From contig NC_068974.1 of the NCBI RefSeq assembly GCF_016808095.1, positions 5,952,001 through 6,016,000 on the forward strand: DNA of 64,000 nt. The letters run 5' to 3'. Position numbers and translations under genes: made by a program. The stretch is from Vigna angularis (taxonomy: Eukaryota > Streptophyta > Magnoliopsida > Fabales > Fabaceae). Shown piece by piece: positions 10,746 through 30,898 of this stretch (its first letter is position 1; every line of letters starts with the position of its first letter). The notes beneath the pieces are model-generated. The model was not told the origin of the DNA and made no database searches. It was given only the letters and a program-made list of their open reading frames with translations.

Positions 10746-10790
10746 TCAGAAAGGCTGAAAACGAAAAATGGAAGAGCCTTTGGATGAGGC

Positions 10791-10798
10791 TATAAATA
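10791..10798 (+). promoter_or_regulatory. TATA box of the 5' LTR
   Basis: TATAAATA lies downstream of the palindrome cluster and upstream of the R region, and is conserved in the 3' LTR (30290). Confidence 0.7.
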
Positions 10799-11397: not shown

Positions 11398-11409
11398 TGG
11401 TATCAGAGC
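11398..11409 (+). other. Primer-binding site (initiator Met tRNA)
   Basis: TGGTATCAGAGC is complementary to the 3' end of plant initiator methionine tRNA and lies two bases after the 5' LTR, the standard copia minus-strand primer site. Confidence 0.95.
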
Positions 11410-11972: not shown

Positions 11973-11981
11973 CAACCAAAA

Positions 11982-13130
11982 GTGACTGCAATTTCTGAGT
12001 CACAAAATCTCAACACAATGACAATGGCTGCATTATTTGGAAAGTTGAGAGAGCATGAACTTGACCTCGGAAGACTAGATGAAGAAGAAGCAAAAACTAA
12101 GAAAAAGACTCTAGCCTTCAAATCTGAGGTAGAAAAGAACAAAAGCAAAATGGAAGATGAAGACTCAGAAGAAGATGAAAATTTGAGTCTACTAATCAAG
12201 AGGTTCAATAGGTTCATGAAATCAAAAGGCAAAGGGAGATTCAGAAATGAAAAGAGAGAAAATCAAGGATCTTCCTCAAACTATAGATGCTATGGTTGCG
12301 GAGAAAAAGGACATTTAAAAGCAGACTGCCCAAATCAAAAGAAGGGTGAAGAAAAGAAAGAAAAGAAATTCTTCAAGAAAAAGAAAGCATACATCGCATG
12401 GGACGATGACAACGAATCAATTTCTGACTCAAGCAGTTCTGATGAAGAAGCAAACATATGTCTAATGGCGGATGACGACGACGCTGGAAGCCAAGTAAGT
12501 ACATCTAACGATTCAGATAATTCTAGTCAATATGATAGTGAAACTGAATTGCATGATACTTATGCTGCCTTATTAGTAGAATCCGAAAAATTAGATATAG
12601 CTCATAAGAAATTGAAAAAGGATTTCAAAGAGTTAAAATTAAATTTTGAAAATATTCTTGAAGAAAATGAAAATTTGAAAATTACTTCTGAAAATTTCTC
12701 TAAAATTAATGATAATTTGAAAACTGAATTTACAAATTTGTTTGAAGAAAACAGAAGTTTGAAAAATAAATTTTTATATCAAGCGGAAGAAATTAGAAAT
12801 CTAAAAAGCAAAATTTTATATCATGAAAAAGAAAAATATATTGCTAAAAATGAATGTGAATCTTGTATAAAATTCAAATATTTTTCTGAAAATACAACCA
12901 CTGGAGAATGTAGTAAAAATAATGAAAATAAGGTTGTTAAAAATAAGTATGTTCCTAGAATTAAACACAATTATAGAACCCGTAGAACTTGGGTAGAAAA
13001 AGGAGCAACTTATAGGAACACAAATGTTGCATCATGCTTTTATTGTATGAAAAAGGGTCATACATCAAACAAATGTAAAATTAAGCATTATGGTGTTCCA
13101 AGTGGTAGATATGCTTGGGTTGTAAAATGA
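11982..13130 (+). pseudogene. gag: gag, C-terminal part with two zinc knuckles
   Basis: In the same frame as the upstream part, it encodes the rest of Gag, about 380 residues. A CCHC zinc knuckle (CYGCGEKGHLKADC) is encoded at 12288-12329, followed by a Lys-rich segment, an acidic Ser/Asp/Glu-rich segment, a long Lys/Glu/Asn-rich coiled coil (about residues 200-300 of this piece) and a second CCHC knuckle (CFYCMKKGHTSNKC) at 13035-13076. It ends at TGA. The following ~80 bases up to pol carry stops in the pol frame, so a Gag-Pol fusion is not straightforward in this copy; pol lies in a different frame. Confidence 0.85.
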
Positions 13131-13209: not shown

Positions 13210-14031
13210 GAATTATCAAAACCAAGGAAGTATATGTGGTGTCTTGACAGTGGATGTTCAAAACACATGACCGGAGATAAAAAGAAATTTACAAGCTTCC
13301 GGAAAAAGGAACGAGGCTTTGTCACCTATGGTGACAACAACAAAGGAAAAATCCTTGGAATAGGAGATATTGGAAGTGAAGATACCTTGATGATCAAAGA
13401 CGTGCTATATGTGGAAGGATTAAAGCACAACTTATTTAGCATTAGTCAATTATGCGATAAAGGATTCAAGGTAACCTTCGAACAAAATTCTTGCACTATT
13501 TATAAAAATGATTCCTCTGAAATTGCTTTGAAAGGAATTAGGCATAACAATATTTATTTGATTGATTTAGAAAATGCATCAAATAGGAATATTTCATGTT
13601 TAGTAGTAAAAGAAGAAAATCCATGGTTATGGCATAAAAGAGCTGCACATATTCATATGCAACAATTGAATAAACTCATTTCTAAAGATTTAGTAATTGG
13701 TCTACCAAAACTAAAATATGTGAAAAACAAATTTTGTGATGCATGTCAAAAGGGAAAACAAGTGAAATCATCTTTTCATTCGAAAAATGTTGTTTCTAGT
13801 TTAAAACCCTTAGAACTTTTGCACATGGATTTATTTGGTCCCTCTAGGATAAAAAGTTTTGGAGGAAATTATTATGCTTTAGTTATTGTAGATGATTATT
13901 CAAGATATACTTGGACTTTCTTTCTTACTCTTAAAAGTGAAGCTTTCAAAGAATTTAAAAAGTTTGCAAATTTGGTTCAAAATGAAAAGGATTTGAAAAT
14001 AAAGGCTATTAGAAGTGACCATGGAGGTTAA
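13210..14031 (+). pseudogene. pol: pol, protease and integrase N-terminal part
   Basis: The frame opens after a TAG at 13207; the first Met is at 13234. The aspartic protease active site DSG is at 13245-13253 within LDSGCSKHMTG. The gag-pre-integrase zinc-binding region follows (LWHKRAAHIH ... CDACQKGKQ), then the integrase core with the first catalytic Asp at 13828 (HMDLFGP) and the second at 14017 (SDHGG). A TAA at 14029 terminates the frame two codons after the Gly pair; relatives have Glu here. The same frame continues beyond it, so this is again a pure nonsense mutation. Confidence 0.88.
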
Positions 14032-14808
14032 TTTCAAAATGAATCTTTTGAAACTTTTTGTGAAGAATATGGCATTTCTCATAATTTTTCTGCACCTAGA
14101 ACTCCTCAACAAAATGGAGTTGTAGAAAGAAAGAATAGATCCTTAGAGGAACTTGCTAGAACTATGTTAAATGAATATAGTGTTCCTAAACAATTTTGGG
14201 CTAATGCTGTGAGTACTGCATGTTATGTATTGAATAGAATGCTTATTAGGCCAATTTTGAAATGTACTCCTTATGAACTTTTTAAAGGAAGAAAACCAAA
14301 TGTTTCACATTTAAGAATTTTTGGATGCAAAAGTTTTGTCTTAAATAATGGAAAACAAAATTTAGGAAAATTTGATTCCAAATCCGATGAAGCTATTTTT
14401 CTAGGATATTCTCTAACTAGCAAAGCTTATAGAGTTTTTAATCAGAAAACACTTGAAATAGAAGAATCTGTGCATGTTGTCTTTGATGAAATTGTGGACC
14501 TTGAGGTAAAACCTCTTGAGTCAGATGAATCAGATGCAGGTGAAAATGAAGACTTGCAAAAGACAACCAATGAAGAGAAAATGAATAATCCTCAAGATGA
14601 TGAAGATCTAAACAAAATATGGCAACAACCTAGAGGATTATCATTGGACAACATCATTGGCGACATATCAAAAGGGGTAAATACTAGAAGAAACTTAGTT
14701 AATTTTTGTATGAATGTAGCTTTTATGTCGCAGATTGAACCTAAGAACATTAAGGAAGCTCTTCAAGATGAACAATGGTGTATTGTGATGCAAGAAGAAC
14801 TCAACTAG
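14032..14808 (+). pseudogene. pol: pol, integrase C-terminal part
   Basis: In frame with the preceding part. It contains the catalytic Glu of the integrase DDE triad at 14125 (NGVVERKN), then the GKG-like C-terminal integrase region ([30 protein letters not shown]) and an acidic linker. It stops at TAG 14806, where relatives have Gln; reading continues in frame. The first in-frame ATG is at 14164, but no independent start is implied. Confidence 0.87.
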
Positions 14809-16263
14809 TTTGAAAGAAATCAAGTTTGGGAATTGATTCCTAGAGAAAATACTCATCAAGTAATTGGAACAAAATGGGTATTCAGAAACAAACTGGATGA
14901 AGATGGAAACATCACCAAGAATAAAGCTAGGCTTGTGGCTCAAGGATATAGTCAAGAAGAAGGTATAGATTATGATGAGACATATGCTCCAGTTGCCAGG
15001 TTAGAGGCAATACGCCTACTTCTTGCTTATGCATCTATAATGAAATTTAAATTATTTCAAATGGATGTTAAAAGTGCATTTCTAAATGGTTTTATAAAAG
15101 AAGATGTGTTTGTTGAACAACCACCCGGTTTTGAAGATTTTAAATTTCCAAATCACATCTATAAGTTAAAGAAAGCACTTTATGGTTTAAAACAAGCACC
15201 TAGATCTTGGTATGAAAGACTTAGCAATTTTCTGTTAGAAAATGATTTTAATAGAGGAAAAGTTGATTCCACTTTGTTTATTAAAAGAGTCGAAAAACAT
15301 ATTTTGATTATTCAAGTATATGTTGATGATATTATTTTTGGATCAACTAATAAATCTCTTTGTGAAGAATTTGCTAAGACTATGCAGGGTGAATTTGAAA
15401 TGTCTATGATGGGAGAATTAACATTCTTCCTTGGTCTTCAAATTAAGCAAATGAAAGAAGGTACGTTCATTTCTCAAACTAAGTATTGTAGAGAAATTCT
15501 TAAGAAGTTTGAAATGGACAAAGCAAAGGAAGCATCTACACCTATGGGAACCTCTTGCTATCTTGACAAAGATGAGTCAGGTAAAGAGGTAAATCAAACT
15601 AAATATAGATGTATGATAGGTTCTTTGTTATATCTCACTGCTAGTAGACCAGATATTATGCAGAGTGTTTGTGTGTGTGCTAGGTATCAATCTAGTCCTA
15701 GAGAATCTCACCTTACTGTAGTTAAAAGAATATTGAAATATCTCAAGGGAACTGCATCCTTTGGTTTATGGTATCCATCTGGAACGGAACCTAGTCTTGT
15801 AGGATTTTCCGATGCAGATTATGGAGGTTGTAAGATAGATAGAAAAAACACTAGTGGAACATGTCATCTTCTAGGTAGTTCCTTAGTTTCTTGGCATTCT
15901 AAGAAACAAGCCTGTGTAGCCTTATCTACCACTGAGGCTGAATATATTGCTGCGGGAAATTGCTGTGCGCAAATTTTATGGATGAAACAGCAATTAGAAG
16001 ACTATGACATTCATTTAGATCATATTCCACTCAAGTGTGATAATACAAGTGCAATAAATCTTACAAACAATCCCATAATGCATTCTAGAACTAAGCACAT
16101 TGAGATTAGGCATCACTTCCTTAGAGATCATGTGCAAAAAGAAGATTGTGAAATAGAATATATTGATACCCAACATCAATTAGCTGATATTTTCACCAAA
16201 GCATTGCCTAAAGATAGATTCTATGAGCTTAGAAGAGATTTAGGAATATTGAAAACATCTTAA
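14809..16263 (+). pseudogene. pol: pol, reverse transcriptase and RNase H
   Basis: In frame with the upstream pol parts and itself uninterrupted to TAA at 16261. The RT domain starts at GTKWVFRNK and includes ARLVAQGY, QMDVKSAFLNG, ALYGLKQAPRSW and the catalytic YVDD at 15319-15330 followed by IIFGST. RNase H begins around 15790 with the acidic residue of SDADYGG (15811), then TEAEY, CDNTSA and HSRTKHIEIRHHF, ending ADIFTKAL. The order integrase-RT-RNase H identifies Ty1/copia. The domain looks intact on its own; only the upstream nonsense codons would prevent its production as part of Pol. Confidence 0.92.
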
Positions 16264-16310: not shown

Positions 16311-16603
16311 TAATCGATTAGTCCGTACTGCTAATCGATTAACGTTAATCGATTAACAGGTCCTGTTAATCGATTAACATACGTTACAGGGAGTAAATTC
16401 TGCAAAATCTAGCCGTTGTAACGGCTATAAACGGCCATTTTTTTAAATTTGAACGTTGGGGGGTCATTTCTCAGCCTATTTAAAACCATACCATCCCTCA
16501 TTTTTACCCACTCACTTTACCCATCCCTCTACAAGTCAAATTCACTTCATTTCCTCACTCAAAATTCCATTATCTTGCTGTCCAAAATTCTTTTCAAACT
16601 CTC
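16311..16603 (+). promoter_or_regulatory. Putative internal promoter of the array cassette (unit 1; repeated in every unit)
   Basis: Four TAATCGATTA palindromes at 16311-16380 mirror the LTR U3 cluster and share flanking bases with it (GTTAATCGATTAACATA; AGCCGTTG). Downstream are two TATA-like sequences, CTATAAAC at 16425 and CTATTTAAA at 16476, then about 120 pyrimidine- and A-rich bases before the ATG at 16604. No transcript data are available; a promoter is inferred from the resemblance to the LTR. The same block precedes each of the other 11 ORFs. Confidence 0.55.
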
Positions 16604-17386
16604 ATGGCTGAACCATCAAGAAGAAGAAGAAGAAGAAGCTATGGATCGGAAAGCACGCCTCTAGCACGTGGTCCAAATATTCATGGATGGATTTCCGATG
16701 ATGGAAGGCATGAAGAATATTTGCAAATGTGGAAAGAACGCAAGATTCTTCGTAAAAAATTTGTTGATCTCAATTGGTTTACTGCACATCAATTTCAATT
16801 TTCTCAGCAATTGATTGAGCAAGGCGTCCAGCATCTATTGCAACTTCAAGGGCGTTACTATCCAGATTTGGTAAGAGTATTCTACTATAATCTGAAGTCC
16901 CACAATGGTATTGTTTACACTCGTGTAAAAGGGGTAGATATTATTCTGGATAATGACATTTGGACAAATGTTGCTCATCTTCCCATCTTAGAAAATACTA
17001 TGCATGTGCCAAATGACTTTGGTGATTTTAACAAAATTTTGGCCTATCGCTCCTTCATGCGTAATCCTCAACAACCTCTACCTAATAGGAGATATCTTCT
17101 AGTAGGAAATCTTAGAATGGAGGAAAGGGTCCTTCATTATCTTATTGTGTGGTTGCTTTGTCCAAGAGGTTCAAACTTAGCACAATGCTTTGAAACCGAT
17201 TTGATGATCATGTCTGCTATCACTCAAAATATGAAAATCAATTGGGCAAGTCTCATCTCCGATACGATTGTCCGTGCAAAGAGGTATGACAGAGGTCATC
17301 TTCCATATCCTCTCCTCATTTCCTTAATCTGTGTCTATAAAGGAGTTGATGTTACGGGGGAGAAATTTCTCACCGTAATCGATTAG
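16604..17386 (+). CDS. Array protein copy 1, truncated (260 aa)
   Basis: The protein starts MAEPS followed by six to seven Arg-region residues (a possible nuclear-localisation or nucleic-acid-binding patch). A globular region follows with motifs HGWISDDGRHEEY, GRYYPDLVRVFYYNL, TRVKGVDIILDNDIW and LIVWLLCPRGSNLAQ. It has no signal peptide or membrane segment, so it is not an envelope-like protein. The layout matches what databases call a putative plant transposon protein domain, function unknown; that match is from memory and should be verified. The last residues, VID, and the TAG stop derive from the palindrome of the next unit. Unit 1 carries the AAAACC variant in its leader (16482 region), shared with units 5 and 8. 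Confidence 0.85.
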   Translation: MAEPSRRRRRRSYGSESTPLARGPNIHGWISDDGRHEEYLQMWKERKILRKKFVDLNWFTAHQFQFSQQLIEQGVQHLLQLQGRYYPDLVRVFYYNLKSHNGIVYTRVKGVDIILDNDIWTNVAHLPILENTMHVPNDFGDFNKILAYRSFMRNPQQPLPNRRYLLVGNLRMEERVLHYLIVWLLCPRGSNLAQCFETDLMIMSAITQNMKINWASLISDTIVRAKRYDRGHLPYPLLISLICVYKGVDVTGEKFLTVID

Positions 17387-17668
17387 TCCGTACTGCTAAT
17401 CGATTAACGTTAATCGATTAACAGGTCCTGTTAATCGATTAACATACGTTACAGGGAGTAAATTCTGCAAAATCTAGCCGTTGTAACGGCTATAAACGGC
17501 CATTTTTTTAAATTTGAACGTTGGGGGGTCATTTCTCAGCCTATTTAAACCCATACCATCCCTCATTTTTACCCACTCACTTTACCCATCCCTCTACAAG
17601 TCAAATTCACTTCATTTCCTCACTCAAAATTCCATTATCTTGCTGTCCAAAATTCTTTTCAAACTCTC

Positions 17669-18451
17669 ATGGCTGAACCATCAAGAAGAAGAAGAAGAAG
17701 AAGCTATGGATCGGAAAGCACGCCTCTAGCACGTGGTCCAAATATTCATGGATGGATTTCCGATGATGGAAGGCATGAAGAATATTTGCAAATGTGGAAA
17801 GAACGCAAGATTCTTCGTAAAAAATTTGTTGATCTCAATTGGTTTACTGCACATCAATTTCAATTTTCTCAGCAATTGATTGAGCAAGGCGTCCAGCATC
17901 TATTGCAACTTCAAGGGCGTTACTATCCAGATTTGGTAAGAGTATTCTACTATAATCTGAAGTCCCACAATGGTATTGTTTACACTCGTGTAAAAGGGGT
18001 AGATATTATTCTGGATAATGACATTTGGACAAATGTTGCTCATCTTCCCATCTTAGAAAATACTATGCATGTGCCAAATGACTTTGGTGATTTTAACAAA
18101 ATTTTGGCCTATCGCTCCTTCATGCGTAATCCTCAACAACCTCTACCTAATAGGAGATATCTTCTAGTAGGAAATCTTAGAATGGAGGAAAGGGTCCTTC
18201 ATTATCTTATTGTGTGGTTGCTTTGTCCAAGAGGTTCAAACTTAGCACAATGCTTTGAAACCGATTTGATGATCATGTCTGCTATCACTCAAAATATGAA
18301 AATCAATTGGGCAAGTCTCATCTCCGATACGATTGTCCGTGCAAAGAGGTATGACAGAGGTCATCTTCCATATCCTCTCCTCATTTCCTTAATCTGTGTC
18401 TATAAAGGAGTTGATGTTACGGGGGAGAAATTTCTCACCGTAATCGATTAG
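17669..18451 (+). CDS. Array protein copy 2, truncated (260 aa)
   Basis: Identical in protein sequence to copy 1. The leader has the majority AAACCC variant. Stop codon supplied by the next unit's palindrome. Together with units 3, 4, 6 and 9 it represents the array consensus, with no private change noticed. Confidence 0.85.
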   Translation: MAEPSRRRRRRSYGSESTPLARGPNIHGWISDDGRHEEYLQMWKERKILRKKFVDLNWFTAHQFQFSQQLIEQGVQHLLQLQGRYYPDLVRVFYYNLKSHNGIVYTRVKGVDIILDNDIWTNVAHLPILENTMHVPNDFGDFNKILAYRSFMRNPQQPLPNRRYLLVGNLRMEERVLHYLIVWLLCPRGSNLAQCFETDLMIMSAITQNMKINWASLISDTIVRAKRYDRGHLPYPLLISLICVYKGVDVTGEKFLTVID

Positions 18452-18733
18452 TCCGTACTGCTAATCGATTAACGTTAATCGATTAACAGGTCCTGTTAAT
18501 CGATTAACATACGTTACAGGGAGTAAATTCTGCAAAATCTAGCCGTTGTAACGGCTATAAACGGCCATTTTTTTAAATTTGAACGTTGGGGGGTCATTTC
18601 TCAGCCTATTTAAACCCATACCATCCCTCATTTTTACCCACTCACTTTACCCATCCCTCTACAAGTCAAATTCACTTCATTTCCTCACTCAAAATTCCAT
18701 TATCTTGCTGTCCAAAATTCTTTTCAAACTCTC

Positions 18734-19516
18734 ATGGCTGAACCATCAAGAAGAAGAAGAAGAAGAAGCTATGGATCGGAAAGCACGCCTCTAGCACGTG
18801 GTCCAAATATTCATGGATGGATTTCCGATGATGGAAGGCATGAAGAATATTTGCAAATGTGGAAAGAACGCAAGATTCTTCGTAAAAAATTTGTTGATCT
18901 CAATTGGTTTACTGCACATCAATTTCAATTTTCTCAGCAATTGATTGAGCAAGGCGTCCAGCATCTATTGCAACTTCAAGGGCGTTACTATCCAGATTTG
19001 GTAAGAGTATTCTACTATAATCTGAAGTCCCACAATGGTATTGTTTACACTCGTGTAAAAGGGGTAGATATTATTCTGGATAATGACATTTGGACAAATG
19101 TTGCTCATCTTCCCATCTTAGAAAATACTATGCATGTGCCAAATGACTTTGGTGATTTTAACAAAATTTTGGCCTATCGCTCCTTCATGCGTAATCCTCA
19201 ACAACCTCTACCTAATAGGAGATATCTTCTAGTAGGAAATCTTAGAATGGAGGAAAGGGTCCTTCATTATCTTATTGTGTGGTTGCTTTGTCCAAGAGGT
19301 TCAAACTTAGCACAATGCTTTGAAACCGATTTGATGATCATGTCTGCTATCACTCAAAATATGAAAATCAATTGGGCAAGTCTCATCTCCGATACGATTG
19401 TCCGTGCAAAGAGGTATGACAGAGGTCATCTTCCATATCCTCTCCTCATTTCCTTAATCTGTGTCTATAAAGGAGTTGATGTTACGGGGGAGAAATTTCT
19501 CACCGTAATCGATTAG
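18734..19516 (+). CDS. Array protein copy 3, truncated (260 aa)
   Basis: Consensus unit; protein identical to copies 1 and 2 and leader of the AAACCC type. No private variant noticed. Confidence 0.85.
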   Translation: MAEPSRRRRRRSYGSESTPLARGPNIHGWISDDGRHEEYLQMWKERKILRKKFVDLNWFTAHQFQFSQQLIEQGVQHLLQLQGRYYPDLVRVFYYNLKSHNGIVYTRVKGVDIILDNDIWTNVAHLPILENTMHVPNDFGDFNKILAYRSFMRNPQQPLPNRRYLLVGNLRMEERVLHYLIVWLLCPRGSNLAQCFETDLMIMSAITQNMKINWASLISDTIVRAKRYDRGHLPYPLLISLICVYKGVDVTGEKFLTVID

Positions 19517-19798
19517 TCCGTACTGCTAATCGATTAACGTTAATCGATTAACAGGTCCTGTTAATCGATTAACATACGTTACAGGGAGTAAATTCTGCAA
19601 AATCTAGCCGTTGTAACGGCTATAAACGGCCATTTTTTTAAATTTGAACGTTGGGGGGTCATTTCTCAGCCTATTTAAACCCATACCATCCCTCATTTTT
19701 ACCCACTCACTTTACCCATCCCTCTACAAGTCAAATTCACTTCATTTCCTCACTCAAAATTCCATTATCTTGCTGTCCAAAATTCTTTTCAAACTCTC

Positions 19799-20581
19799 AT
19801 GGCTGAACCATCAAGAAGAAGAAGAAGAAGAAGCTATGGATCGGAAAGCACGCCTCTAGCACGTGGTCCAAATATTCATGGATGGATTTCCGATGATGGA
19901 AGGCATGAAGAATATTTGCAAATGTGGAAAGAACGCAAGATTCTTCGTAAAAAATTTGTTGATCTCAATTGGTTTACTGCACATCAATTTCAATTTTCTC
20001 AGCAATTGATTGAGCAAGGCGTCCAGCATCTATTGCAACTTCAAGGGCGTTACTATCCAGATTTGGTAAGAGTATTCTACTATAATCTGAAGTCCCACAA
20101 TGGTATTGTTTACACTCGTGTAAAAGGGGTAGATATTATTCTGGATAATGACATTTGGACAAATGTTGCTCATCTTCCCATCTTAGAAAATACTATGCAT
20201 GTGCCAAATGACTTTGGTGATTTTAACAAAATTTTGGCCTATCGCTCCTTCATGCGTAATCCTCAACAACCTCTACCTAATAGGAGATATCTTCTAGTAG
20301 GAAATCTTAGAATGGAGGAAAGGGTCCTTCATTATCTTATTGTGTGGTTGCTTTGTCCAAGAGGTTCAAACTTAGCACAATGCTTTGAAACCGATTTGAT
20401 GATCATGTCTGCTATCACTCAAAATATGAAAATCAATTGGGCAAGTCTCATCTCCGATACGATTGTCCGTGCAAAGAGGTATGACAGAGGTCATCTTCCA
20501 TATCCTCTCCTCATTTCCTTAATCTGTGTCTATAAAGGAGTTGATGTTACGGGGGAGAAATTTCTCACCGTAATCGATTAG
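19799..20581 (+). CDS. Array protein copy 4, truncated (260 aa)
   Basis: Consensus unit; protein identical to copy 1. It precedes a unit with the AAAACC leader, closing a possible four-unit block (units 1-4). Confidence 0.85.
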   Translation: MAEPSRRRRRRSYGSESTPLARGPNIHGWISDDGRHEEYLQMWKERKILRKKFVDLNWFTAHQFQFSQQLIEQGVQHLLQLQGRYYPDLVRVFYYNLKSHNGIVYTRVKGVDIILDNDIWTNVAHLPILENTMHVPNDFGDFNKILAYRSFMRNPQQPLPNRRYLLVGNLRMEERVLHYLIVWLLCPRGSNLAQCFETDLMIMSAITQNMKINWASLISDTIVRAKRYDRGHLPYPLLISLICVYKGVDVTGEKFLTVID

Positions 20582-20863
20582 TCCGTACTGCTAATCGATT
20601 AACGTTAATCGATTAACAGGTCCTGTTAATCGATTAACATACGTTACAGGGAGTAAATTCTGCAAAATCTAGCCGTTGTAACGGCTATAAACGGCCATTT
20701 TTTTAAATTTGAACGTTGGGGGGTCATTTCTCAGCCTATTTAAAACCATACCATCCCTCATTTTTACCCACTCACTTTACCCATCCCTCTACAAGTCAAA
20801 TTCACTTCATTTCCTCACTCAAAATTCCATTATCTTGCTGTCCAAAATTCTTTTCAAACTCTC

Positions 20864-21646
20864 ATGGCTGAACCATCAAGAAGAAGAAGAAGAAGAAGCT
20901 ATGGATCGGAAAGCACGCCTCTAGCACGTGGTCCAAATATTCATGGATGGATTTCCGATGATGGAAGGCATGAAGAATATTTGCAAATGTGGAAAGAACG
21001 CAAGATTCTTCGTAAAAAATTTGTTGATCTCAATTGGTTTACTGCACATCAATTTCAATTTTCTCAGCAATTGATTGAGCAAGGCGTCCAGCATCTATTG
21101 CAACTTCAAGGGCGTTACTATCCAGATTTGGTAAGAGTATTCTACTATAATCTGAAGTCCCACAATGGTATTGTTTACACTCGTGTAAAAGGGGTAGATA
21201 TTATTCTGGATAATGACATTTGGACAAATGTTGCTCATCTTCCCATCTTAGAAAATACTATGCATGTGCCAAATGACTTTGGTGATTTTAACAAAATTTT
21301 GGCCTATCGCTCCTTCATGCGTAATCCTCAACAACCTCTACCTAATAGGAGATATCTTCTAGTAGGAAATCTTAGAATGGAGGAAAGGGTCCTTCATTAT
21401 CTTATTGTGTGGTTGCTTTGTCCAAGAGGTTCAAACTTAGCACAATGCTTTGAAACCGATTTGATGATCATGTCTGCTATCACTCAAAATATGAAAATCA
21501 ATTGGGCAAGTCTCATCTCCGATACGATTGTCCGTGCAAAGAGGTATGACAGAGGTCATCTTCCATATCCTCTCCTCATTTCCTTAATCTGTGTCTATAA
21601 AGGAGTTGATGTTACGGGGGAGAAATTTCTCACCGTAATCGATTAG
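20864..21646 (+). CDS. Array protein copy 5, truncated (260 aa)
   Basis: Protein identical to copy 1. It also shares copy 1's AAAACC leader variant, consistent with unit 5 being a duplicate of unit 1 or of a block beginning with it. Confidence 0.85.
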   Translation: MAEPSRRRRRRSYGSESTPLARGPNIHGWISDDGRHEEYLQMWKERKILRKKFVDLNWFTAHQFQFSQQLIEQGVQHLLQLQGRYYPDLVRVFYYNLKSHNGIVYTRVKGVDIILDNDIWTNVAHLPILENTMHVPNDFGDFNKILAYRSFMRNPQQPLPNRRYLLVGNLRMEERVLHYLIVWLLCPRGSNLAQCFETDLMIMSAITQNMKINWASLISDTIVRAKRYDRGHLPYPLLISLICVYKGVDVTGEKFLTVID

Positions 21647-21928
21647 TCCGTACTGCTAATCGATTAACGTTAATCGATTAACAGGTCCTGTTAATCGATT
21701 AACATACGTTACAGGGAGTAAATTCTGCAAAATCTAGCCGTTGTAACGGCTATAAACGGCCATTTTTTTAAATTTGAACGTTGGGGGGTCATTTCTCAGC
21801 CTATTTAAACCCATACCATCCCTCATTTTTACCCACTCACTTTACCCATCCCTCTACAAGTCAAATTCACTTCATTTCCTCACTCAAAATTCCATTATCT
21901 TGCTGTCCAAAATTCTTTTCAAACTCTC

Positions 21929-22711
21929 ATGGCTGAACCATCAAGAAGAAGAAGAAGAAGAAGCTATGGATCGGAAAGCACGCCTCTAGCACGTGGTCCA
22001 AATATTCATGGATGGATTTCCGATGATGGAAGGCATGAAGAATATTTGCAAATGTGGAAAGAACGCAAGATTCTTCGTAAAAAATTTGTTGATCTCAATT
22101 GGTTTACTGCACATCAATTTCAATTTTCTCAGCAATTGATTGAGCAAGGCGTCCAGCATCTATTGCAACTTCAAGGGCGTTACTATCCAGATTTGGTAAG
22201 AGTATTCTACTATAATCTGAAGTCCCACAATGGTATTGTTTACACTCGTGTAAAAGGGGTAGATATTATTCTGGATAATGACATTTGGACAAATGTTGCT
22301 CATCTTCCCATCTTAGAAAATACTATGCATGTGCCAAATGACTTTGGTGATTTTAACAAAATTTTGGCCTATCGCTCCTTCATGCGTAATCCTCAACAAC
22401 CTCTACCTAATAGGAGATATCTTCTAGTAGGAAATCTTAGAATGGAGGAAAGGGTCCTTCATTATCTTATTGTGTGGTTGCTTTGTCCAAGAGGTTCAAA
22501 CTTAGCACAATGCTTTGAAACCGATTTGATGATCATGTCTGCTATCACTCAAAATATGAAAATCAATTGGGCAAGTCTCATCTCCGATACGATTGTCCGT
22601 GCAAAGAGGTATGACAGAGGTCATCTTCCATATCCTCTCCTCATTTCCTTAATCTGTGTCTATAAAGGAGTTGATGTTACGGGGGAGAAATTTCTCACCG
22701 TAATCGATTAG
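21929..22711 (+). CDS. Array protein copy 6, truncated (260 aa)
   Basis: Consensus unit with AAACCC leader; protein identical to copy 1. No private variant noticed. Confidence 0.85.
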   Translation: MAEPSRRRRRRSYGSESTPLARGPNIHGWISDDGRHEEYLQMWKERKILRKKFVDLNWFTAHQFQFSQQLIEQGVQHLLQLQGRYYPDLVRVFYYNLKSHNGIVYTRVKGVDIILDNDIWTNVAHLPILENTMHVPNDFGDFNKILAYRSFMRNPQQPLPNRRYLLVGNLRMEERVLHYLIVWLLCPRGSNLAQCFETDLMIMSAITQNMKINWASLISDTIVRAKRYDRGHLPYPLLISLICVYKGVDVTGEKFLTVID

Positions 22712-22993
22712 TCCGTACTGCTAATCGATTAACGTTAATCGATTAACAGGTCCTGTTAATCGATTAACATACGTTACAGGGAGTAAATTCTGCAAAATCT
22801 AGCCGTTGTAACGGCTATAAACGGCCATTTTTTTAAATTTGAACGTTGGGGGGTCATTTCTCAGCCTATTTAAACCCATACCATCCCTCATTTTTACCCA
22901 CTCACTTTACCCATCCCTCTACAAGTCAAATTCACTTCATTTCCTCACTCAAAATTCCATTATCTTGCTGTCCAAAATTCTTTTCAAACTCTC

Positions 22994-23776
22994 ATGGCTG
23001 AACCATCAAGAAGAAGAAGAAGAAGAAGCTATGGATCGGAAAGCACGCCCCTAGCACGTGGTCCAAATATTCATGGATGGATTTCCGATGATGGAAGGCA
23101 TGAAGAATATTTGCAAATGTGGAAAGAACGCAAGATTCTTCGTAAAAAATTTGTTGATCTCAATTGGTTTACTGCACATCAATTTCAATTTTCTCAGCAA
23201 TTGATTGAGCAAGGCGTCCAGCATCTATTGCAACTTCAAGGGCGTTACTATCCAGATTTGGTAAGAGTATTCTACTATAATCTGAAGTCCCACAATGGTA
23301 TTGTTTACACTCGTGTAAAAGGGGTAGATATTATTCTGGATAATGACATTTGGACAAATGTTGCTCATCTTCCCATCTTAGAAAATACTATGCATGTGCC
23401 AAATGACTTTGGTGATTTTAACAAAATTTTGGCCTATCGCTCCTTCATGCGTAATCCTCAACAACCTCTACCTAATAGGAGATATCTTCTAGTAGGAAAT
23501 CTTAGAATGGAGGAAAGGGTCCTTCATTATCTTATTGTGTGGTTGCTTTGTCCAAGAGGTTCAAACTTAGCACAATGCTTTGAAACCGATTTGATGATCA
23601 TGTCTGCTATCACTCAAAATATGAAAATCAATTGGGCAAGTCTCATCTCCGATACGATTGTCCGTGCAAAGAGGTATGACAGAGGTCATCTTCCATATCC
23701 TCTCCTCATTTCCTTAATCTGTGTCTATAAAGGAGTTGATGTTACGGGGGAGAAATTTCTCACCGTAATCGATTAG
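22994..23776 (+). CDS. Array protein copy 7, truncated (260 aa)
   Basis: Protein identical to copy 1. One silent change (CCT to CCC in the Pro codon near residue 19) marks this unit at about 23050. Confidence 0.85.
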   Translation: MAEPSRRRRRRSYGSESTPLARGPNIHGWISDDGRHEEYLQMWKERKILRKKFVDLNWFTAHQFQFSQQLIEQGVQHLLQLQGRYYPDLVRVFYYNLKSHNGIVYTRVKGVDIILDNDIWTNVAHLPILENTMHVPNDFGDFNKILAYRSFMRNPQQPLPNRRYLLVGNLRMEERVLHYLIVWLLCPRGSNLAQCFETDLMIMSAITQNMKINWASLISDTIVRAKRYDRGHLPYPLLISLICVYKGVDVTGEKFLTVID

Positions 23777-24058
23777 TCCGTACTGCTAATCGATTAACGT
23801 TAATCGATTAACAGGTCCTGTTAATCGATTAACATACGTTACAGGGAGTAAATTCTGCAAAATCTAGCCGTTGTAACGGCTATAAACGGCCATTTTTTTA
23901 AATTTGAACGTTGGGGGGTCATTTCTCAGCCTATTTAAAACCATACCATCCCTCATTTTTACCCACTCACTTTACCCATCCCTCTACAAGTCAAATTCAC
24001 TTCATTTCCTCACTCAAAATTCCATTATCTTGCTGTCCAAAATTCTTTTCAAACTCTC

Positions 24059-24841
24059 ATGGCTGAACCATCAAGAAGAAGAAGAAGAAGAAGCTATGGA
24101 TCGGAAAGCACGCCTCTAGCACGTGGTCCAAATATTCATGGATGGATTTCCGATGATGGAAGGCATGAAGAATATTTGCAAATGTGGAAAGAACGCAAGA
24201 TTCTTCGTAAAAAATTTGTTGATCTCAATTGGTTTACTGCACATCAATTTCAATTTTCTCAGCAATTGATTGAGCAAGGCGTCCAGCATCTATTGCAACT
24301 TCAAGGGCGTTACTATCCAGATTTGGTAAGAGTATTCTACTATAATCTGAAGTCCCACAATGGTATTGTTTACACTCGTGTAAAAGGGGTAAATATTATT
24401 CTGGATAATGACATTTGGACAAATGTTGCTCATCTTCCCATCTTAGAAAATACTATGCATGTGCCAAATGACTTTGGTGATTTTAACAAAATTTTGGCCT
24501 ATCGCTCCTTCATGCGTAATCCTCAACAACCTCTACCTAATAGGAGATATCTTCTAGTAGGAAATCTTAGAATGGAGGAAAGGGTCCTTCATTATCTTAT
24601 TGTGTGGTTGCTTTGTCCAAGAGGTTCAAACTTAGCACAATGCTTTGAAACCGATTTGATGATCATGTCTGCTATCACTCAAAATATGAAAATCAATTGG
24701 GCAAGTCTCATCTCCGATACGATTGTCCGTGCAAAGAGGTATGACAGAGGTCATCTTCCATATCCTCTCCTCATTTCCTTAATCTGTGTCTATAAAGGAG
24801 TTGATGTTACGGGGGAGAAATTTCTCACCGTAATCGATTAG
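24059..24841 (+). CDS. Array protein copy 8, truncated (260 aa), D112N
   Basis: Carries Asp to Asn at residue 112 (GTAGAT to GTAAAT at about 24390), shared only with copy 10. The leader has the AAAACC variant of units 1 and 5. Sharing two diagnostic sites with different partners points to recombination or conversion among units. Confidence 0.85.
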   Translation: MAEPSRRRRRRSYGSESTPLARGPNIHGWISDDGRHEEYLQMWKERKILRKKFVDLNWFTAHQFQFSQQLIEQGVQHLLQLQGRYYPDLVRVFYYNLKSHNGIVYTRVKGVNIILDNDIWTNVAHLPILENTMHVPNDFGDFNKILAYRSFMRNPQQPLPNRRYLLVGNLRMEERVLHYLIVWLLCPRGSNLAQCFETDLMIMSAITQNMKINWASLISDTIVRAKRYDRGHLPYPLLISLICVYKGVDVTGEKFLTVID

Positions 24842-25123
24842 TCCGTACTGCTAATCGATTAACGTTAATCGATTAACAGGTCCTGTTAATCGATTAACAT
24901 ACGTTACAGGGAGTAAATTCTGCAAAATCTAGCCGTTGTAACGGCTATAAACGGCCATTTTTTTAAATTTGAACGTTGGGGGGTCATTTCTCAGCCTATT
25001 TAAACCCATACCATCCCTCATTTTTACCCACTCACTTTACCCATCCCTCTACAAGTCAAATTCACTTCATTTCCTCACTCAAAATTCCATTATCTTGCTG
25101 TCCAAAATTCTTTTCAAACTCTC

Positions 25124-25906
25124 ATGGCTGAACCATCAAGAAGAAGAAGAAGAAGAAGCTATGGATCGGAAAGCACGCCTCTAGCACGTGGTCCAAATAT
25201 TCATGGATGGATTTCCGATGATGGAAGGCATGAAGAATATTTGCAAATGTGGAAAGAACGCAAGATTCTTCGTAAAAAATTTGTTGATCTCAATTGGTTT
25301 ACTGCACATCAATTTCAATTTTCTCAGCAATTGATTGAGCAAGGCGTCCAGCATCTATTGCAACTTCAAGGGCGTTACTATCCAGATTTGGTAAGAGTAT
25401 TCTACTATAATCTGAAGTCCCACAATGGTATTGTTTACACTCGTGTAAAAGGGGTAGATATTATTCTGGATAATGACATTTGGACAAATGTTGCTCATCT
25501 TCCCATCTTAGAAAATACTATGCATGTGCCAAATGACTTTGGTGATTTTAACAAAATTTTGGCCTATCGCTCCTTCATGCGTAATCCTCAACAACCTCTA
25601 CCTAATAGGAGATATCTTCTAGTAGGAAATCTTAGAATGGAGGAAAGGGTCCTTCATTATCTTATTGTGTGGTTGCTTTGTCCAAGAGGTTCAAACTTAG
25701 CACAATGCTTTGAAACCGATTTGATGATCATGTCTGCTATCACTCAAAATATGAAAATCAATTGGGCAAGTCTCATCTCCGATACGATTGTCCGTGCAAA
25801 GAGGTATGACAGAGGTCATCTTCCATATCCTCTCCTCATTTCCTTAATCTGTGTCTATAAAGGAGTTGATGTTACGGGGGAGAAATTTCTCACCGTAATC
25901 GATTAG
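25124..25906 (+). CDS. Array protein copy 9, truncated (260 aa)
   Basis: Consensus unit lying between the two D112N units; protein identical to copy 1. Confidence 0.85.
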   Translation: MAEPSRRRRRRSYGSESTPLARGPNIHGWISDDGRHEEYLQMWKERKILRKKFVDLNWFTAHQFQFSQQLIEQGVQHLLQLQGRYYPDLVRVFYYNLKSHNGIVYTRVKGVDIILDNDIWTNVAHLPILENTMHVPNDFGDFNKILAYRSFMRNPQQPLPNRRYLLVGNLRMEERVLHYLIVWLLCPRGSNLAQCFETDLMIMSAITQNMKINWASLISDTIVRAKRYDRGHLPYPLLISLICVYKGVDVTGEKFLTVID

Positions 25907-26188
25907 TCCGTACTGCTAATCGATTAACGTTAATCGATTAACAGGTCCTGTTAATCGATTAACATACGTTACAGGGAGTAAATTCTGCAAAATCTAGCCG
26001 TTGTAACGGCTATAAACGGCCATTTTTTTAAATTTGAACGTTGGGGGGTCATTTCTCAGCCTATTTAAACCCATACCATCCCTCATTTTTACCCACTCAC
26101 TTTACCCATCCCTCTACAAGTCAAATTCACTTCATTTCCTCACTCAAAATTCCATTATCTTGCTGTCCAAAATTCTTTTCAAACTCTC

Positions 26189-26971
26189 ATGGCTGAACCA
26201 TCAAGAAGAAGAAGAAGAAGAAGCTATGGATCGGAAAGCACGCCTCTAGCACGTGGTCCAAATATTCATGGATGGATTTCCGATGATGGAAGGCATGAAG
26301 AATATTTGCAAATGTGGAAAGAACGCAAGATTCTTCGTAAAAAATTTGTTGATCTCAATTGGTTTACTGCACATCAATTTCAATTTTCTCAGCAATTGAT
26401 TGAGCAAGGCGTCCAGCATCTATTGCAACTTCAAGGGCGTTACTATCCAGATTTGGTAAGAGTATTCTACTATAATCTGAAGTCCCACAATGGTATTGTT
26501 TACACTCGTGTAAAAGGGGTAAATATTATTCTGGATAATGACATTTGGACAAATGTTGCTCATCTTCCCATCTTAGAAAATACTATGCATGTGCCAAATG
26601 ACTTTGGTGATTTTAACAAAATTTTGGCCTATCGCTCCTTCATGCGTAATCCTCAACAACCTCTACCTAATAGGAGATATCTTCTAGTAGGAAATCTTAG
26701 AATGGAGGAAAGGGTCCTTCATTATCTTATTGTGTGGTTGCTTTGTCCAAGAGGTTCAAACTTAGCACAATGCTTTGAAACCGATTTGATGATCATGTCT
26801 GCTATCACTCAAAATATGAAAATCAATTGGGCAAGTCTCATCTCCGATACGATTGTCCGTGCAAAGAGGTATGACAGAGGTCATCTTCCATATCCTCTCC
26901 TCATTTCCTTAATCTGTGTCTATAAAGGAGTTGATGTTACGGGGGAGAAATTTCTCACCGTAATCGATTAG
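26189..26971 (+). CDS. Array protein copy 10, truncated (260 aa), D112N
   Basis: Second unit with Asn at residue 112 (about 26520), but with the majority AAACCC leader, unlike copy 8. Confidence 0.85.
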   Translation: MAEPSRRRRRRSYGSESTPLARGPNIHGWISDDGRHEEYLQMWKERKILRKKFVDLNWFTAHQFQFSQQLIEQGVQHLLQLQGRYYPDLVRVFYYNLKSHNGIVYTRVKGVNIILDNDIWTNVAHLPILENTMHVPNDFGDFNKILAYRSFMRNPQQPLPNRRYLLVGNLRMEERVLHYLIVWLLCPRGSNLAQCFETDLMIMSAITQNMKINWASLISDTIVRAKRYDRGHLPYPLLISLICVYKGVDVTGEKFLTVID

Positions 26972-27253
26972 TCCGTACTGCTAATCGATTAACGTTAATC
27001 GATTAACAGGTCCTGTTAATCGATTAACATACGTTACAGGGAGTAAATTCTGCAAAATCTAGCCGTTGTAACGGCTATAAACGGCCATTTTTTTAAATTT
27101 GAACGTTGGGGGGTCATTTCTCAGCCTATTTAAACCCATACCATCCCTCATTTTTACCCACTCACTTTACCCATCCCTCTACAAGTCAAATTCACTTCAT
27201 TTCCTCACTCAAAATTCCATTATCTTGCTGTCCAAAATTCTTTTCAAACTCTC

Positions 27254-28033
27254 ATGGCTGAACCATCAAGAAGAAGAAGAAGAAGCTATGGATCGGAAAG
27301 CACGCCTCTAGCACGTGGTCCAAATATTCATGGATGGATTTCCGATGATGGAAGGCATGAAGAATATTTGCAAATGTGGAAAGAACGCAAGATTCTTCGT
27401 AAAAAATTTGTTGATCTCAATTGGTTTACTGCACATCAATTTCAATTTTCTCAGCAATTGATTGAGCAAGGCGTCCAGCATCTATTGCAACTTCAAGGGC
27501 GTTACTATCCAGATTTGGTAAGAGTATTCTACTATAATCTGAAGTCCCACAATGGTATTGTTTACACTCGTGTAAAAGGGGTAGATATTATTCTGGATAA
27601 TGACATTTGGACAAATGTTGCTCATCTTCCCATCTTAGAAAATACTATGCATGTGCCAAATGACTTTGGTGATTTTAACAAAATTTTGGCCTATCGCTCC
27701 TTCATGTGTAATCCTCAACAACCTCTACCTAATAGGAGATATCTTCTAGTAGGAAATCTTAGAATGGAGGAAAGGGTCCTTCATTATCTTATTGTGTGGT
27801 TGCTTTGTCCAAGAGGTTCAAACTTAGCACAATGCTTTGAAACCGATTTGATGATCATGTCTGCTATCACTCAAAATATGAAAATCAATTGGGCAAGTCT
27901 CATCTCCGATACGATTGTCCGTGCAAAGAGGTATGACAGAGGTCATCTTCCATATCCTCTCCTCATTTCCTTAATCTGTGTCTATAAAGGAGTTGATGTT
28001 ACGGGGGAGAAATTTCTCACCGTAATCGATTAG
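27254..28033 (+). CDS. Array protein copy 11, truncated (259 aa)
   Basis: One AGA codon of the N-terminal Arg run is missing, giving a 1,062-bp unit. A CGT-to-TGT change makes Arg to Cys in the motif FMRNPQQ. Both changes are private, as expected near the edge of an array exchanging mostly in its middle. Confidence 0.85.
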   Translation: MAEPSRRRRRSYGSESTPLARGPNIHGWISDDGRHEEYLQMWKERKILRKKFVDLNWFTAHQFQFSQQLIEQGVQHLLQLQGRYYPDLVRVFYYNLKSHNGIVYTRVKGVDIILDNDIWTNVAHLPILENTMHVPNDFGDFNKILAYRSFMCNPQQPLPNRRYLLVGNLRMEERVLHYLIVWLLCPRGSNLAQCFETDLMIMSAITQNMKINWASLISDTIVRAKRYDRGHLPYPLLISLICVYKGVDVTGEKFLTVID

Positions 28034-28315
28034 TCCGTACTGCTAATCGATTAACGTTAATCGATTAACAGGTCCTGTTAATCGATTAACATACGTTACA
28101 GGGAGTAAATTCTGCAAAATCTAGCCGTTGTAACGGCTATAAACGACCATTTTTTTAAATTTGAACGTTGGGGGGTCATTTCTCAGCCTATTTAAACCCA
28201 TACCATCCCTCATTTTTACCCACTCACTTTACCCATCCCTCTACAACTCAAATTCACTTCATTTCCTCACTCAAAATTCCATTATCTTGCTGTCCAAAAT
28301 TCTTTTCAAACTCTC

Positions 28316-29449
28316 ATGGCTGAACCATCAAGAAGAAGAAGAAGAAGAAGCTATGGATCGGAAAGCACGCCTCTAGCACGTGGTCCAAATATTCATGGAT
28401 GGATTTCCGATGATGGAAGGCATGAAGAATATTTGCAAATGTGGAAAGAACGCAAGATTCTTCGTAAAAAATTTGTTGATCTCAATTGGTTTACTGCACA
28501 TCAATTTCAATTTTCTCAGCAATTGATTGAGCAAGGCGTCCAGCATCTATTGCAACTTCAAGGGCGTTACTATCCAGATTTGGTAAGAGTATTCTACTAT
28601 AATCTGAAGTCCCACAATGGTATTGTTTACACTCGTGTAAAAGGGGTAGATATTATTCTGGATAATGACATTTGGACAAATGTTGCTCATCTTCCCATCT
28701 TAGAAAATACTATGCATGTGCCAAATGACTTTGGTGATTTTAACAAAATTTTGGCCTATCGCTCCTTCATGCGTAATCCTCAACAACCTCTACCTAATAG
28801 GAGATATCTTCTAGTAGGAAATCTTAGAATGGAGGAAAGGGTCCTTCATTATCTTATTATGTGGTTGCTTTGTCCAAGAGGTTCAAACTTAGCACAATGC
28901 TTTGAAACCGATTTGATGATCATGTCTGCTATCACTCAAAATATGAAAATCAATTGGGCAAGTCTCATCTCCGATACGATTGTCCGTGCAAAGAGGTATG
29001 ACAAAGGTCATCTTCCATATCCTCTCCTCATTTCCTTAATCTGTGTCTATAAAGGAGTTGATGTTACGGGGGAGAAATTTCTCACCGTCTTACGAAATCA
29101 TGAAATTGAGGAATCAACATTGCATCAAATGGGTTTTATACGACAAGGAAATCTGTTTGTCCGTGCTGAAGGGGATATTGCACAAGATGATGACGCATCA
29201 GCTGAAGAAGATGAAGATATTCCTATGCCTCATCCAACAAATGTTGCTGGCCCATCCCATCCTCCACAAGAATATAGTCTAGAAAGTATATCTAGACAAA
29301 TTGAAGAAATGGCCTCTATGCAACAAACAAGGATGGATGATATGATGGCTTATCACACTCTTCGCTATGATGAAATTAATAATCATCTTAAGCAGATTGA
29401 TGACAAACTTGCAAAACTCTATGTTCCCGATAGTGATGATGAGTCTTAG
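28316..29449 (+). CDS. Array protein copy 12, full-length (377 aa)
   Basis: This is the only copy with the native 3' end. After the shared ~257 residues it continues for about 120: a short region with FIRQGNLFVRAEG, an acidic patch (DDDASAEEDEDIP), a Pro-rich linker and a heptad-like segment (about residues 310-370) predicted by eye to be a coiled coil, ending PDSDDES. The 11 truncated copies lack all of this and could lack multimerisation or act as competitors if expressed. Private changes include V182M, R230K and two leader substitutions. It lies directly upstream of the purine tracts, the usual place of the extra ORF in Sireviruses. There is no transmembrane segment. Function unknown. Confidence 0.88.
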   Translation: MAEPSRRRRRRSYGSESTPLARGPNIHGWISDDGRHEEYLQMWKERKILRKKFVDLNWFTAHQFQFSQQLIEQGVQHLLQLQGRYYPDLVRVFYYNLKSHNGIVYTRVKGVDIILDNDIWTNVAHLPILENTMHVPNDFGDFNKILAYRSFMRNPQQPLPNRRYLLVGNLRMEERVLHYLIMWLLCPRGSNLAQCFETDLMIMSAITQNMKINWASLISDTIVRAKRYDKGHLPYPLLISLICVYKGVDVTGEKFLTVLRNHEIEESTLHQMGFIRQGNLFVRAEGDIAQDDDASAEEDEDIPMPHPTNVAGPSHPPQEYSLESISRQIEEMASMQQTRMDDMMAYHTLRYDEINNHLKQIDDKLAKLYVPDSDDES

Positions 29450-29784: not shown

Positions 29785-30893
29785 TGTTAGCAAAATAATG
29801 AAGATGAAGTTTTGATGATGTCCAAATCAAGTCAAGAACAACCAAGACTCATGAAGAATGATCTTTGAAGACTTGTAACCTTTTGTAATAACTGTATGAA
29901 CATAGGAAAATTCGTAGTTTTATGTATGCATTCAAAAGTGATGTAAAAATAAACCAAAAGCAAAAACTATGCAGTGCTAATCGATTAACAGAGGGTGTTA
30001 ATCGATTAGCGTTAATCGATTAGCAAGAGTATCTAATCGATTGTTCCAGAGACGAATGGAGAAGCACAACAATCCAGTGCTAATCGATTAACAGAGGGTG
30101 TTAATTGATTAGCGTTAATCGATTAACAAGGGTTGTTAATCGATTAACACAGTGACCGTTTGAAAAACTAGCCGTTTTTAGAGCCGTTGGACTATCCGTT
30201 GGAGTGTTAATCGATTAACCACTGTAGCTAATCGATTTACACAGTTAGAAAGGCTGAAAACGAAAAATGGAAGAGCCTTTGGATGAGTCTATAAATAGAC
30301 TCTCATTTTCTCTCAAGAAGGTGTTCCAGAACTTACAACTCTTCCCTTGTGCTCAAATACTCAGAAACTCTTGAGAATTGTGTGCTCTTGCTCAGCTAAG
30401 GAAACTCTGTCTGTAGAGTTGGTGAAATATTGCTACGGTGATAGAGGAATAGCTGGTTCATCCTTGGTGTATCTAAGGAAGTGTTTGGAAGAGGAAGTCA
30501 TCCTTCGTGAAGTATTCGGAGGAAGTGTTTCATCCTTTGTGAAGATTCAAAGGAGGTGTTGGTTCATCTCTTGTGGCATCAAGAGAGGTGTTTCCTAAAC
30601 TTTTACAAATTGTATCTGTGTGATTATAGTTTGTAATTGTTTTGTGATTAGTGAATTGTTTATCTTGTTTTGAGATAAGCGACTGGACGTAGGATTGGTA
30701 AGATCCGAACCAGGATAAAATTCATCTGTGCAAATTTCTCTCAACCTTACTCTATTTTATTGTTATTATTAATTGCTAAGTAAGTTTAATTGAGTAGAAA
30801 TTTTTAAGGTACACGTTTTGAGTAAGAACCAATTCATCCCCCCCTCTTTGTTTGTTATTCCACGCTAACCATTCCGCTGCAGCCGCTCTGACA
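29785..30893 (+). mobile_element. 3' LTR of the Sirevirus
   Basis: Starts TGTTAGCAAAAT after the polypurine tract and ends CTCTGACA before AAATG. Its U3 palindromes are slightly more regular than in the 5' LTR (for example TAATCGATTAG where the 5' copy has TAATCGATTTG). One-base length difference from the 5' LTR. Confidence 0.95.
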
Positions 30894-30898
30894 AAATG
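30894..30898. repeat. Target-site duplication AAATG (right)
   Basis: Exact match of 10281-10285. Confidence 0.95.

What the first reader, a model, noticed from the sequence alone, without database searches (positions are those of the whole stretch)
16311..29088. Twelve-fold tandem array of a promoter-plus-ORF cassette inside one retrotransposon
Seen: a 1,065-bp unit holding a TAATCGATTA cluster, TATA-like boxes and one open reading frame is repeated 12 times between pol and the 3' purine tract, more than doubling the element. Known: Sireviruses carry one extra ORF here. Inference: if the upstream block is a promoter, the element contains a dozen independent expression cassettes for one accessory protein, an amplification within a mobile element that I have not seen described.
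Basis: partly seen in the sequence, partly recalled or inferred. Interest (0 to 1): 0.9.

Follow-up and report, generated by a model that had tools for sequence, protein, structure and literature searches.

The report
Recent twelve-unit array inside a Sirevirus
In the adzuki bean genome one old, broken retrotransposon copy appears to have recently multiplied an internal promoter-plus-gene block to twelve units, and that block carries a patterned set of short DNA sites that recurs in relatives and may be the target of the protein it encodes.

Summary
The array is real in the assembly: 12 units, 16311-29088, period 1065 bp (unit 11: 1062), inside a Sirevirus-type element (10286-30893). Correction: only unit 12 carries the full 377-aa ORF; units 1-11 end at the tandem junction (260 aa; 259 in unit 11), keeping the PF20167 domain but losing the C-terminal tail. 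The junction matches 11 times in the 448-Mb assembly, all here; the 12 relatives read have one cassette each. Units 1-11 differ by 1.1 substitutions on average, the LTRs by 19. So this is most likely a recent, in-place DNA amplification, not a travelling feature.

The parts
10281..10285 (.). target-site duplication AAATG (left)
   Evidence: identical to 30894-30898
10286..11395 (+). 5' LTR, 1110 bp, TG...CA; 7 TAATCGATTA sites
   Evidence: self-BLAST 98.2% to 3' LTR; alignment 19 substitutions + 1 indel; site count
11397..11409 (+). primer-binding site next to the LTR (TTGGTATCAGAGC, initiator-Met type by recall)
   Evidence: read; label recalled
11430..13130 (+). gag: Retrotran_gag_2, DUF4219, zinc knuckle; in-frame stop at 11970
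   Evidence: Pfam; stops
13234..16263 (+). pol: gag_pre-integrase, integrase (rve just under its cut-off), SH3-like, RVT_2; in-frame stops at 14029 and 14806
   Evidence: Pfam; stops
16311..28022 (+). array units 1-11 (1065 bp x10, 1062 bp for unit 11), each with TAATCGATTA quartet, core promoter block and a truncated ORF
28023..29088 (+). array unit 12, continuous with the full-length ORF; keeps the ancestral C at unit site 225
16311..16376 (+). unit 1 site quartet: 4 x TAATCGATTA with gaps 11-4-11 (repeated in every unit)
16474..16532 (+). unit 1 core promoter block (TATA-like box CCTATTTAAA at -129 from ATG), conserved in relatives
16604..17386 (+). unit 1 truncated ORF (260 aa, PF20167 intact, C-terminal tail missing); the like in units 2-11
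28316..29449 (+). full-length accessory ('env-like') ORF, 377 aa, PF20167 Transposase_32 at residues 73-249, predicted C-terminal helix 322-369
17369..17386 (+). first tandem junction CTCACCGT|AATCGATTAG (11 copies; found nowhere else in the genome)
29785..30893 (+). 3' LTR, 1109 bp, 7 TAATCGATTA sites
30894..30898 (.). target-site duplication AAATG (right)

Best explanation
One Sirevirus-type copy of adzuki bean inserted, decayed, and later had a 1065-bp internal segment duplicated in place and then amplified to 12 units by DNA-level exchange between repeats. The segment is a natural expression cassette: a TAATCGATTA quartet, a core promoter and the front two thirds of the accessory ORF. Shown: structure, a junction found only here, units much more alike than the LTRs, one ancestral unit (12) and eleven sharing a derived base, and a pattern that suggests exchange between units. 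Inferred: that the first duplication began by a break or template switch at the hairpin-forming palindrome cluster (left breakpoint), joined with a 1-bp overlap to the right breakpoint, and that unequal crossing-over or slippage then enlarged it. Inferred: that the cassettes can be transcribed, giving one full and eleven truncated proteins. In the wider family the cassette looks like functional cis-DNA: an internal promoter for the accessory ORF with a site cluster of the same kind as in the LTR.
For: Array geometry and ORFs. Junction pattern with up to 3 mismatches: 11 matches in the whole genome, all in this array, 0 for the reversed control; none in the 14 other loci then held, i.e. 12 relatives and 2 flank pieces. 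The 12 relatives read (of 28 listed) each have a single cassette; the 28 non-array ORF matches are at least 645 kb apart. LTRs: 19 substitutions in 1109 sites; unit 12 versus the base state of units 1-11: 4 in 1065 (Fisher p 0.0026); within units 1-11: mean 1.13, maximum 3. Unit site 225: G in units 1-11, C in unit 12 and in 12 of 12 relatives. All four combinations at sites 175 and 627 occur among the units. Left breakpoint lies in two DNA hairpins, z -9.2. Promoter: 59-bp core 0-1 changes in 10 of 12 relatives, against 5-10 in the 110 bp before it and, L009 aside (1), 6-10 in the leader after it; TATA-like box in 10 of 12 A, 10 of 11 B and 3 of 3 C relatives. ORF dN/dS 0.15-0.18 against 8 relatives, 0.31 against L009.
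Against: Copy number rests on one assembly whose read type I could not establish; units 2, 3, 4, 6 and 9 are identical, as are 1 and 5. Gene conversion could make an older array look young. Using only the 293 noncoding bases, unit 12 versus LTR age is not significant (2 against 19, p 0.28); transitions only, p 0.021. The four combinations could come from recurrent mutation: one relative each has A at site 175 (L020) and 627 (L015). The right-breakpoint hairpin is no better than shuffles (z -0.47). L017 and L020 lack the core block; L031 lacks a box. The eight relatives behind the dN/dS and core comparison are close to one another, so they are nearly one comparison, and the C-terminal part is under weaker constraint (mean dN 0.023, dS 0.061, against 0.019 and 0.115 for the N part). 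No expression data.
Confidence: 0.72

Rival explanations
1. Assembly artefact: a locus with one or a few cassettes was unrolled into twelve by the assembler, or the copy number is wrong.
For: Five units are identical to each other and two more to each other; the read technology of this assembly was not established; a newer adzuki paper reports a better assembly than Jingnong6 (PMC12822460, passages).
Against: Units carry private differences (C350 in unit 7; T750 and a 3-bp deletion in unit 11; A124, A837, A982 in unit 12) and shared ones (A175 in 1, 5, 8; A627 in 8, 10); the edges are clean; no N in the window. At least one duplication must be real unless the junction itself is an error.
Confidence: 0.15
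2. The duplication arose during reverse transcription (strand transfer between co-packaged RNAs), so that the element inserted with the array, as proposed for Ogre 3' UTR repeats.
For: Mechanism hypothesised for Ogre-type repeats (PMC7004042, Discussion read); strong hairpins at the left breakpoint could stall a reverse transcriptase (inference).
Against: Unit 12 and units 1-11 should then differ about as much as the LTRs: 4 against 19; eleven units would carry about 100 substitutions, and only 4 variable sites and one 3-bp deletion are seen among them, 7 substituted states if counted unit by unit; no other copy of the junction. Only strong homogenisation could save it.
Confidence: 0.1
3. The array was selected because extra TAATCGATTA quartets or extra truncated DNA-binding-type proteins help expression of Sireviruses in trans.
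For: 44 added sites (48 in all), PF20167 intact in the two ORF forms scanned; tandem growth of target sites is typical of VANDAL/VANC (PMC5735166, passages).
Against: In-frame stops in gag-pol; four of the five coding substitutions among the 12 units fall at codon position 1 or 2, so no sign of constraint, though numbers are tiny; the array is at a single locus.
Confidence: 0.1

Closest known systems
Sirevirus / SIRE lineage of Ty1-copia with eORF-3'F ('env-like')
   Same: Copia gag-pol order, Met-type PBS (recalled), several polypurine boxes, extra ORF after pol; 74% of SIRE elements have such an ORF (PMC6317226, passages)
   Different: twelve cassettes instead of one; the ORF has its own TATA-like box, whereas SIRE1 is reported to use stop-codon suppression and an internal promoter had been proposed but not identified (PMC2829016, section 20)
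Ogre/Tat 3' UTR tandem repeats that seed satellites
   Same: tandem array between pol and the 3' LTR of a plant LTR retrotransposon (PMC7004042, passages and Discussion)
   Different: Ogre repeats lie in untranslated DNA and occur in many element copies; this unit is a 1065-bp promoter-plus-ORF block found at one locus
VANC anti-silencing proteins and their target repeats (VANDAL transposons)
   Different: retrotransposon, not a Mutator-like element; 10-bp palindrome in phased clusters; no sequence match to DUF1985 or to any solved structure; binding not shown
PF20167 proteins of Athila elements
   Same: same Pfam family in a 3' ORF of sunflower Athila (PMC11728184, passages)
   Different: Gypsy superfamily; no site arrays mentioned in the passages seen

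Membership tests
Sirevirus (SIRE lineage, Ty1-copia) | gag, integrase, then reverse transcriptase of Copia type | tested here: met
   Retrotran_gag_2, gag_pre-integrs, rve (30.7 bits, cut-off 32.6), RVT_2 in this order
Sirevirus (SIRE lineage, Ty1-copia) | multiple polypurine boxes before the 3' LTR | tested here: met
   GGGGGAG at 29604, 29645 and 29776, read; feature named in a section title of PMC2829016
Sirevirus (SIRE lineage, Ty1-copia) | RT phylogeny places it in SIRE | not tested
   no tree built
Sirevirus (SIRE lineage, Ty1-copia) | extra ORF downstream of pol | tested here: met
   28316-29449, 377 aa, PF20167
Satellite-forming retrotransposon 3' repeats (Ogre type) | tandem array between pol and 3' LTR | tested here: met
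Satellite-forming retrotransposon 3' repeats (Ogre type) | array present in many element copies or spread as satellite | tested here: not met
   junction found only at this locus; 12 of 12 relatives read have one cassette
VANC anti-silencing protein | VANC fold / DNA-binding domain | tested here: inconclusive
VANC anti-silencing protein | DUF1985 sequence domain | tested here: inconclusive
   no DUF1985 hit among 64 members, but a distant relative could be missed; genome search uninformative because its controls were silent
VANC anti-silencing protein | short motif clustered in noncoding TE regions and varying between related elements | tested here: met
   TAATCGATTA in the LTR and before the ORF; spacing differs between A and B, flanking base in C
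VANC anti-silencing protein | binds the motif and removes DNA methylation | not testable with these tools
   needs binding and methylation assays

The most novel reading that the evidence does not exclude
The 'env-like' ORF of legume Sireviruses is not an envelope but a VANC-like, sequence-specific DNA-binding anti-silencing protein. It recognises clustered palindromes (TAATCGATTA) that the element keeps in its LTR U3 and in its own internal promoter; protein subfamily and site code (spacing 11/4, spacing 10/2, or ATAATCGATTAT pairs) evolve as one module that can be swapped between gag-pol backbones. The twelve-unit array is then a runaway expansion of a target-site-plus-binder cassette, the retrotransposon counterpart of VANC target repeats.
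Probability: 0.35. Interest if true: 0.88.

Novelty: new variant of a known kind. Interest (0 to 1): 0.62.

Why it matters
The array shows a promoter-plus-ORF block, not just noncoding DNA, amplified inside a plant retrotransposon after insertion: tandem-repeat birth caught early and datable against the element's own LTRs. More broadly, the comparison it prompted gives the long-debated 'env-like' gene of Sireviruses a specific, testable role: an internal promoter with a TATA-like box, purifying selection on the protein, and a site cluster whose geometry tracks the protein subfamily. If binding is confirmed, anti-silencing by TE-encoded DNA-binding proteins would extend from DNA transposons to a widespread group of plant retrotransposons.

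Tried and rejected

Literature. Search listings only. Passages: PMC2829016 (section 20 in 39), PMC7004042 (Discussion in 36), PMC6317226, PMC12822460, PMC9021634, PMC3414828, PMC5735166, PMC10398659, PMC11728184, PMC12844716. PMC9016345 is not held. The general idea that extra ORFs of LTR retrotransposons might modulate silencing, with VANDAL as the example, is already in print for sunflower Tekay, Tork and Athila. In what I saw, nobody ties the PF20167 ORF of Sireviruses to VANC or to TAATCGATTA clusters, and no coding cassette array in a Sirevirus is described; that is absence in these searches only. The 1.3e-8 rate is recalled.

Full report
Where it is. The window is G000:C5:5952001-6016000 of a 448-Mb, 33-contig genome. 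Four contig lengths (C1 65407200, C9 32215300, C10 31493818; C4 42641100) equal those listed for Vigna angularis HKW66 proteins P0007, P0006, P0017 and P0010; C2 (52842630) does not equal the 52846339 listed for HKW66 protein P0002. The host is adzuki bean, by inference. The element spans 10286-30893 with a 5-bp AAATG target duplication and LTRs of 1110 and 1109 bp. Pfam finds Copia gag, integrase (rve just under its cut-off) and RVT_2. gag-pol has in-frame stops at 11970, 14029 and 14806.

The array. Twelve units start at 16311 and end at 29088. Ten are 1065 bp, unit 11 is 1062 bp. The unit begins in a palindrome cluster and ends inside the accessory ORF. At each of the 11 internal junctions the ORF runs from ...CTCACCGT into AATCGATTAG and stops after two extra residues: 260 aa (259 in unit 11). 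Only unit 12 goes on to 377 aa (28316-29449). PF20167 (residues 73-249) is intact in both forms scanned, unit 1 and unit 12; what is lost is residues 259-377, an acidic stretch and a long helix (322-369 in the model).

How old it is. The LTRs differ by 19 substitutions in 1109 sites and one indel. Units 1-11 differ by 1.13 substitutions per pair on average, at most 3; unit 12 differs from them by 4 to 6. Among units 1-11 there are 4 variable sites and one 3-bp deletion (7 substituted states counted unit by unit); if the array were as old as the insertion, about 100 substitutions would be expected. Unit 12 against the base state of the others, 4/1065 versus 19/1109, gives Fisher p 0.0026, 0.021 with transitions only and 0.28 with noncoding sites only. 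With a recalled rate of 1.3e-8 these are about 0.66, 0.14 and 0.04 million years. At unit site 225, units 1-11 share a G; unit 12 and 12 of 12 relatives have C: unit 12 keeps the old state, and the eleven descend from one duplicate. Sites 175 and 627 show all four combinations among units (1 and 5 A/G, 8 A/A, 10 C/A, the rest C/G), as expected from exchange between repeats, though recurrent mutation is possible (L020 and L015 also have A at one of these sites).

It is private. The 25-bp junction pattern with up to 3 mismatches matches 11 times in the genome, all in this array. Twelve relatives read at length (L009-L020, of 28 listed) each have one cassette, and the 28 are at least 645 kb apart. 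Larger surveys (110 and 105 scored matches), read by eye, show no full-length pair about 1 kb apart (nearest same-strand pair 5.5 kb, C6); but only a fraction of candidates was scored, and truncated copies could be missed: the units of this very array are not among the 110.

How it may have started. The left breakpoint sits in two adjacent DNA hairpins (13- and 16-bp stems; z -9.2 against shuffles), the right one at the foot of a weak hairpin (z -0.47), with one base of overlap. A break or template switch there, followed by unequal exchange, is my inference.

The cassette looks like a real unit. In 10 of 12 relatives a 59-bp block with CCTATTTAAA has 0 or 1 change, while the 110 bp before it have 5-10 and the leader after it 6-10, L009 aside with 1. 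Synonymous sites of the ORF differ by 0.17-0.20 from eight relatives (L009 is close, and L010, L012, L020 were dropped there). These relatives are close to each other, so this is nearly one comparison. L017 and L020 have lost the block. In subfamily B (ORF about 53% identical; 11 distinct loci fetched of 110 matches) a TATA-like box lies at -110 to -114 in 10 of 11, and in subfamily C (about 42%; 3 loci of 105) at -132 or -133 in 3 of 3 (the search patterns for B and C were looser than for A, and C positions count from the start of the protein match). An internal promoter for the Sirevirus env-like gene was proposed before but not identified (PMC2829016 section 20). dN/dS is 0.15-0.18 against eight relatives and 0.31 against L009; the C-terminal part is less constrained than the N part (ratio of means 0.37 against 0.16).

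The site code. TAATCGATTA occurs 7 times in each LTR of this element, 4 times before the ORF in every unit, and not in gag-pol. Counting gaps of up to 16 between neighbouring sites: in 12 A loci, after the ORF (3' LTR side) 40 x 11, 20 x 4, 1 x 12; before the ORF 18 x 11, 10 x 4, 1 x 8, and 2 x 10 from the rearranged L020. In 11 B loci, 43 x 10 and 12 x 2 after, 20 x 10 and 10 x 2 before, no other value. Within gag-pol there are none in 10 of 12 A and 11 of 11 B loci; the exceptions L014 and L020 are rearranged. In three C elements the sites come mostly as pairs with gaps 10 or 11, before the ORF and after the purine tract (LTR by position; ends not mapped), and are ATAATCGATTAT in 36 of 37 cases. 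The base outside the 10-mer is T in 99% of C half-sites, in 1 of 336 in A (A 73%, G 24%), and in 22% in B (A 67%), so B is in between. Spacers differ between the two clusters of B elements while the sites do not. L027 and L028 share 97-99.5% of sampled gag-pol pieces and about 97-98% of the later LTR with the window element but have a B-type ORF, B-type spacing and a diverged U3: the 3' module has been exchanged as a block. As its parts are adjacent, one recombination suffices; the shared geometry of two separate clusters is the stronger hint of function, although in A the two clusters are still recognisably alike in sequence (88.7% over 53 bases), so copying between them is possible.

Verdict. 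The array is most likely a recent, single-locus amplification, a coding variant of the known growth of tandem repeats inside plant retrotransposons. Its copy number needs spanning reads. The larger interest lies in the conserved cassette and its site code.

Noticed in passing
window 33227-33779: About 184 copies of AAG (98% match), an unusually long trinucleotide run near the element.
   Followed up: no
window 41880-42190: Ten-copy 31-bp minisatellite (GAAGGCTTTCGCCCTTCGGTACTTACCGAAG).
   Followed up: no
window 3370-5196: Diverged ~294-bp repeats that also hold TAATCGATTA pairs 21 bp apart (3797/3818, 4682/4703, 4978/4999), perhaps remains of another element of this group.
   Followed up: no
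window 48522-48884 (-), 58937-59338 (+), 60491-60892 (-): Three further ORFs with sub-threshold PF20167 matches, probably remnants of other elements with this ORF.
   Followed up: partly
window 10286-10830, 29785-30330, 16311-16603: AACGG/CCGTT motifs are more frequent than in shuffles in U3 (3 and 4) and before the ORF (3) but not in gag-pol (1); by recall this resembles the MYB3R/MSA cell-cycle element.
   Followed up: partly
window 35981-36681 and 40908-41608: Direct repeats of about 700 bp, 93.7% identical, perhaps LTRs of another element.
   Followed up: no
L014, L020: L014 has LTR pieces where most of gag-pol should be; L020 has foreign sequence between pol and the ORF.
   Followed up: partly
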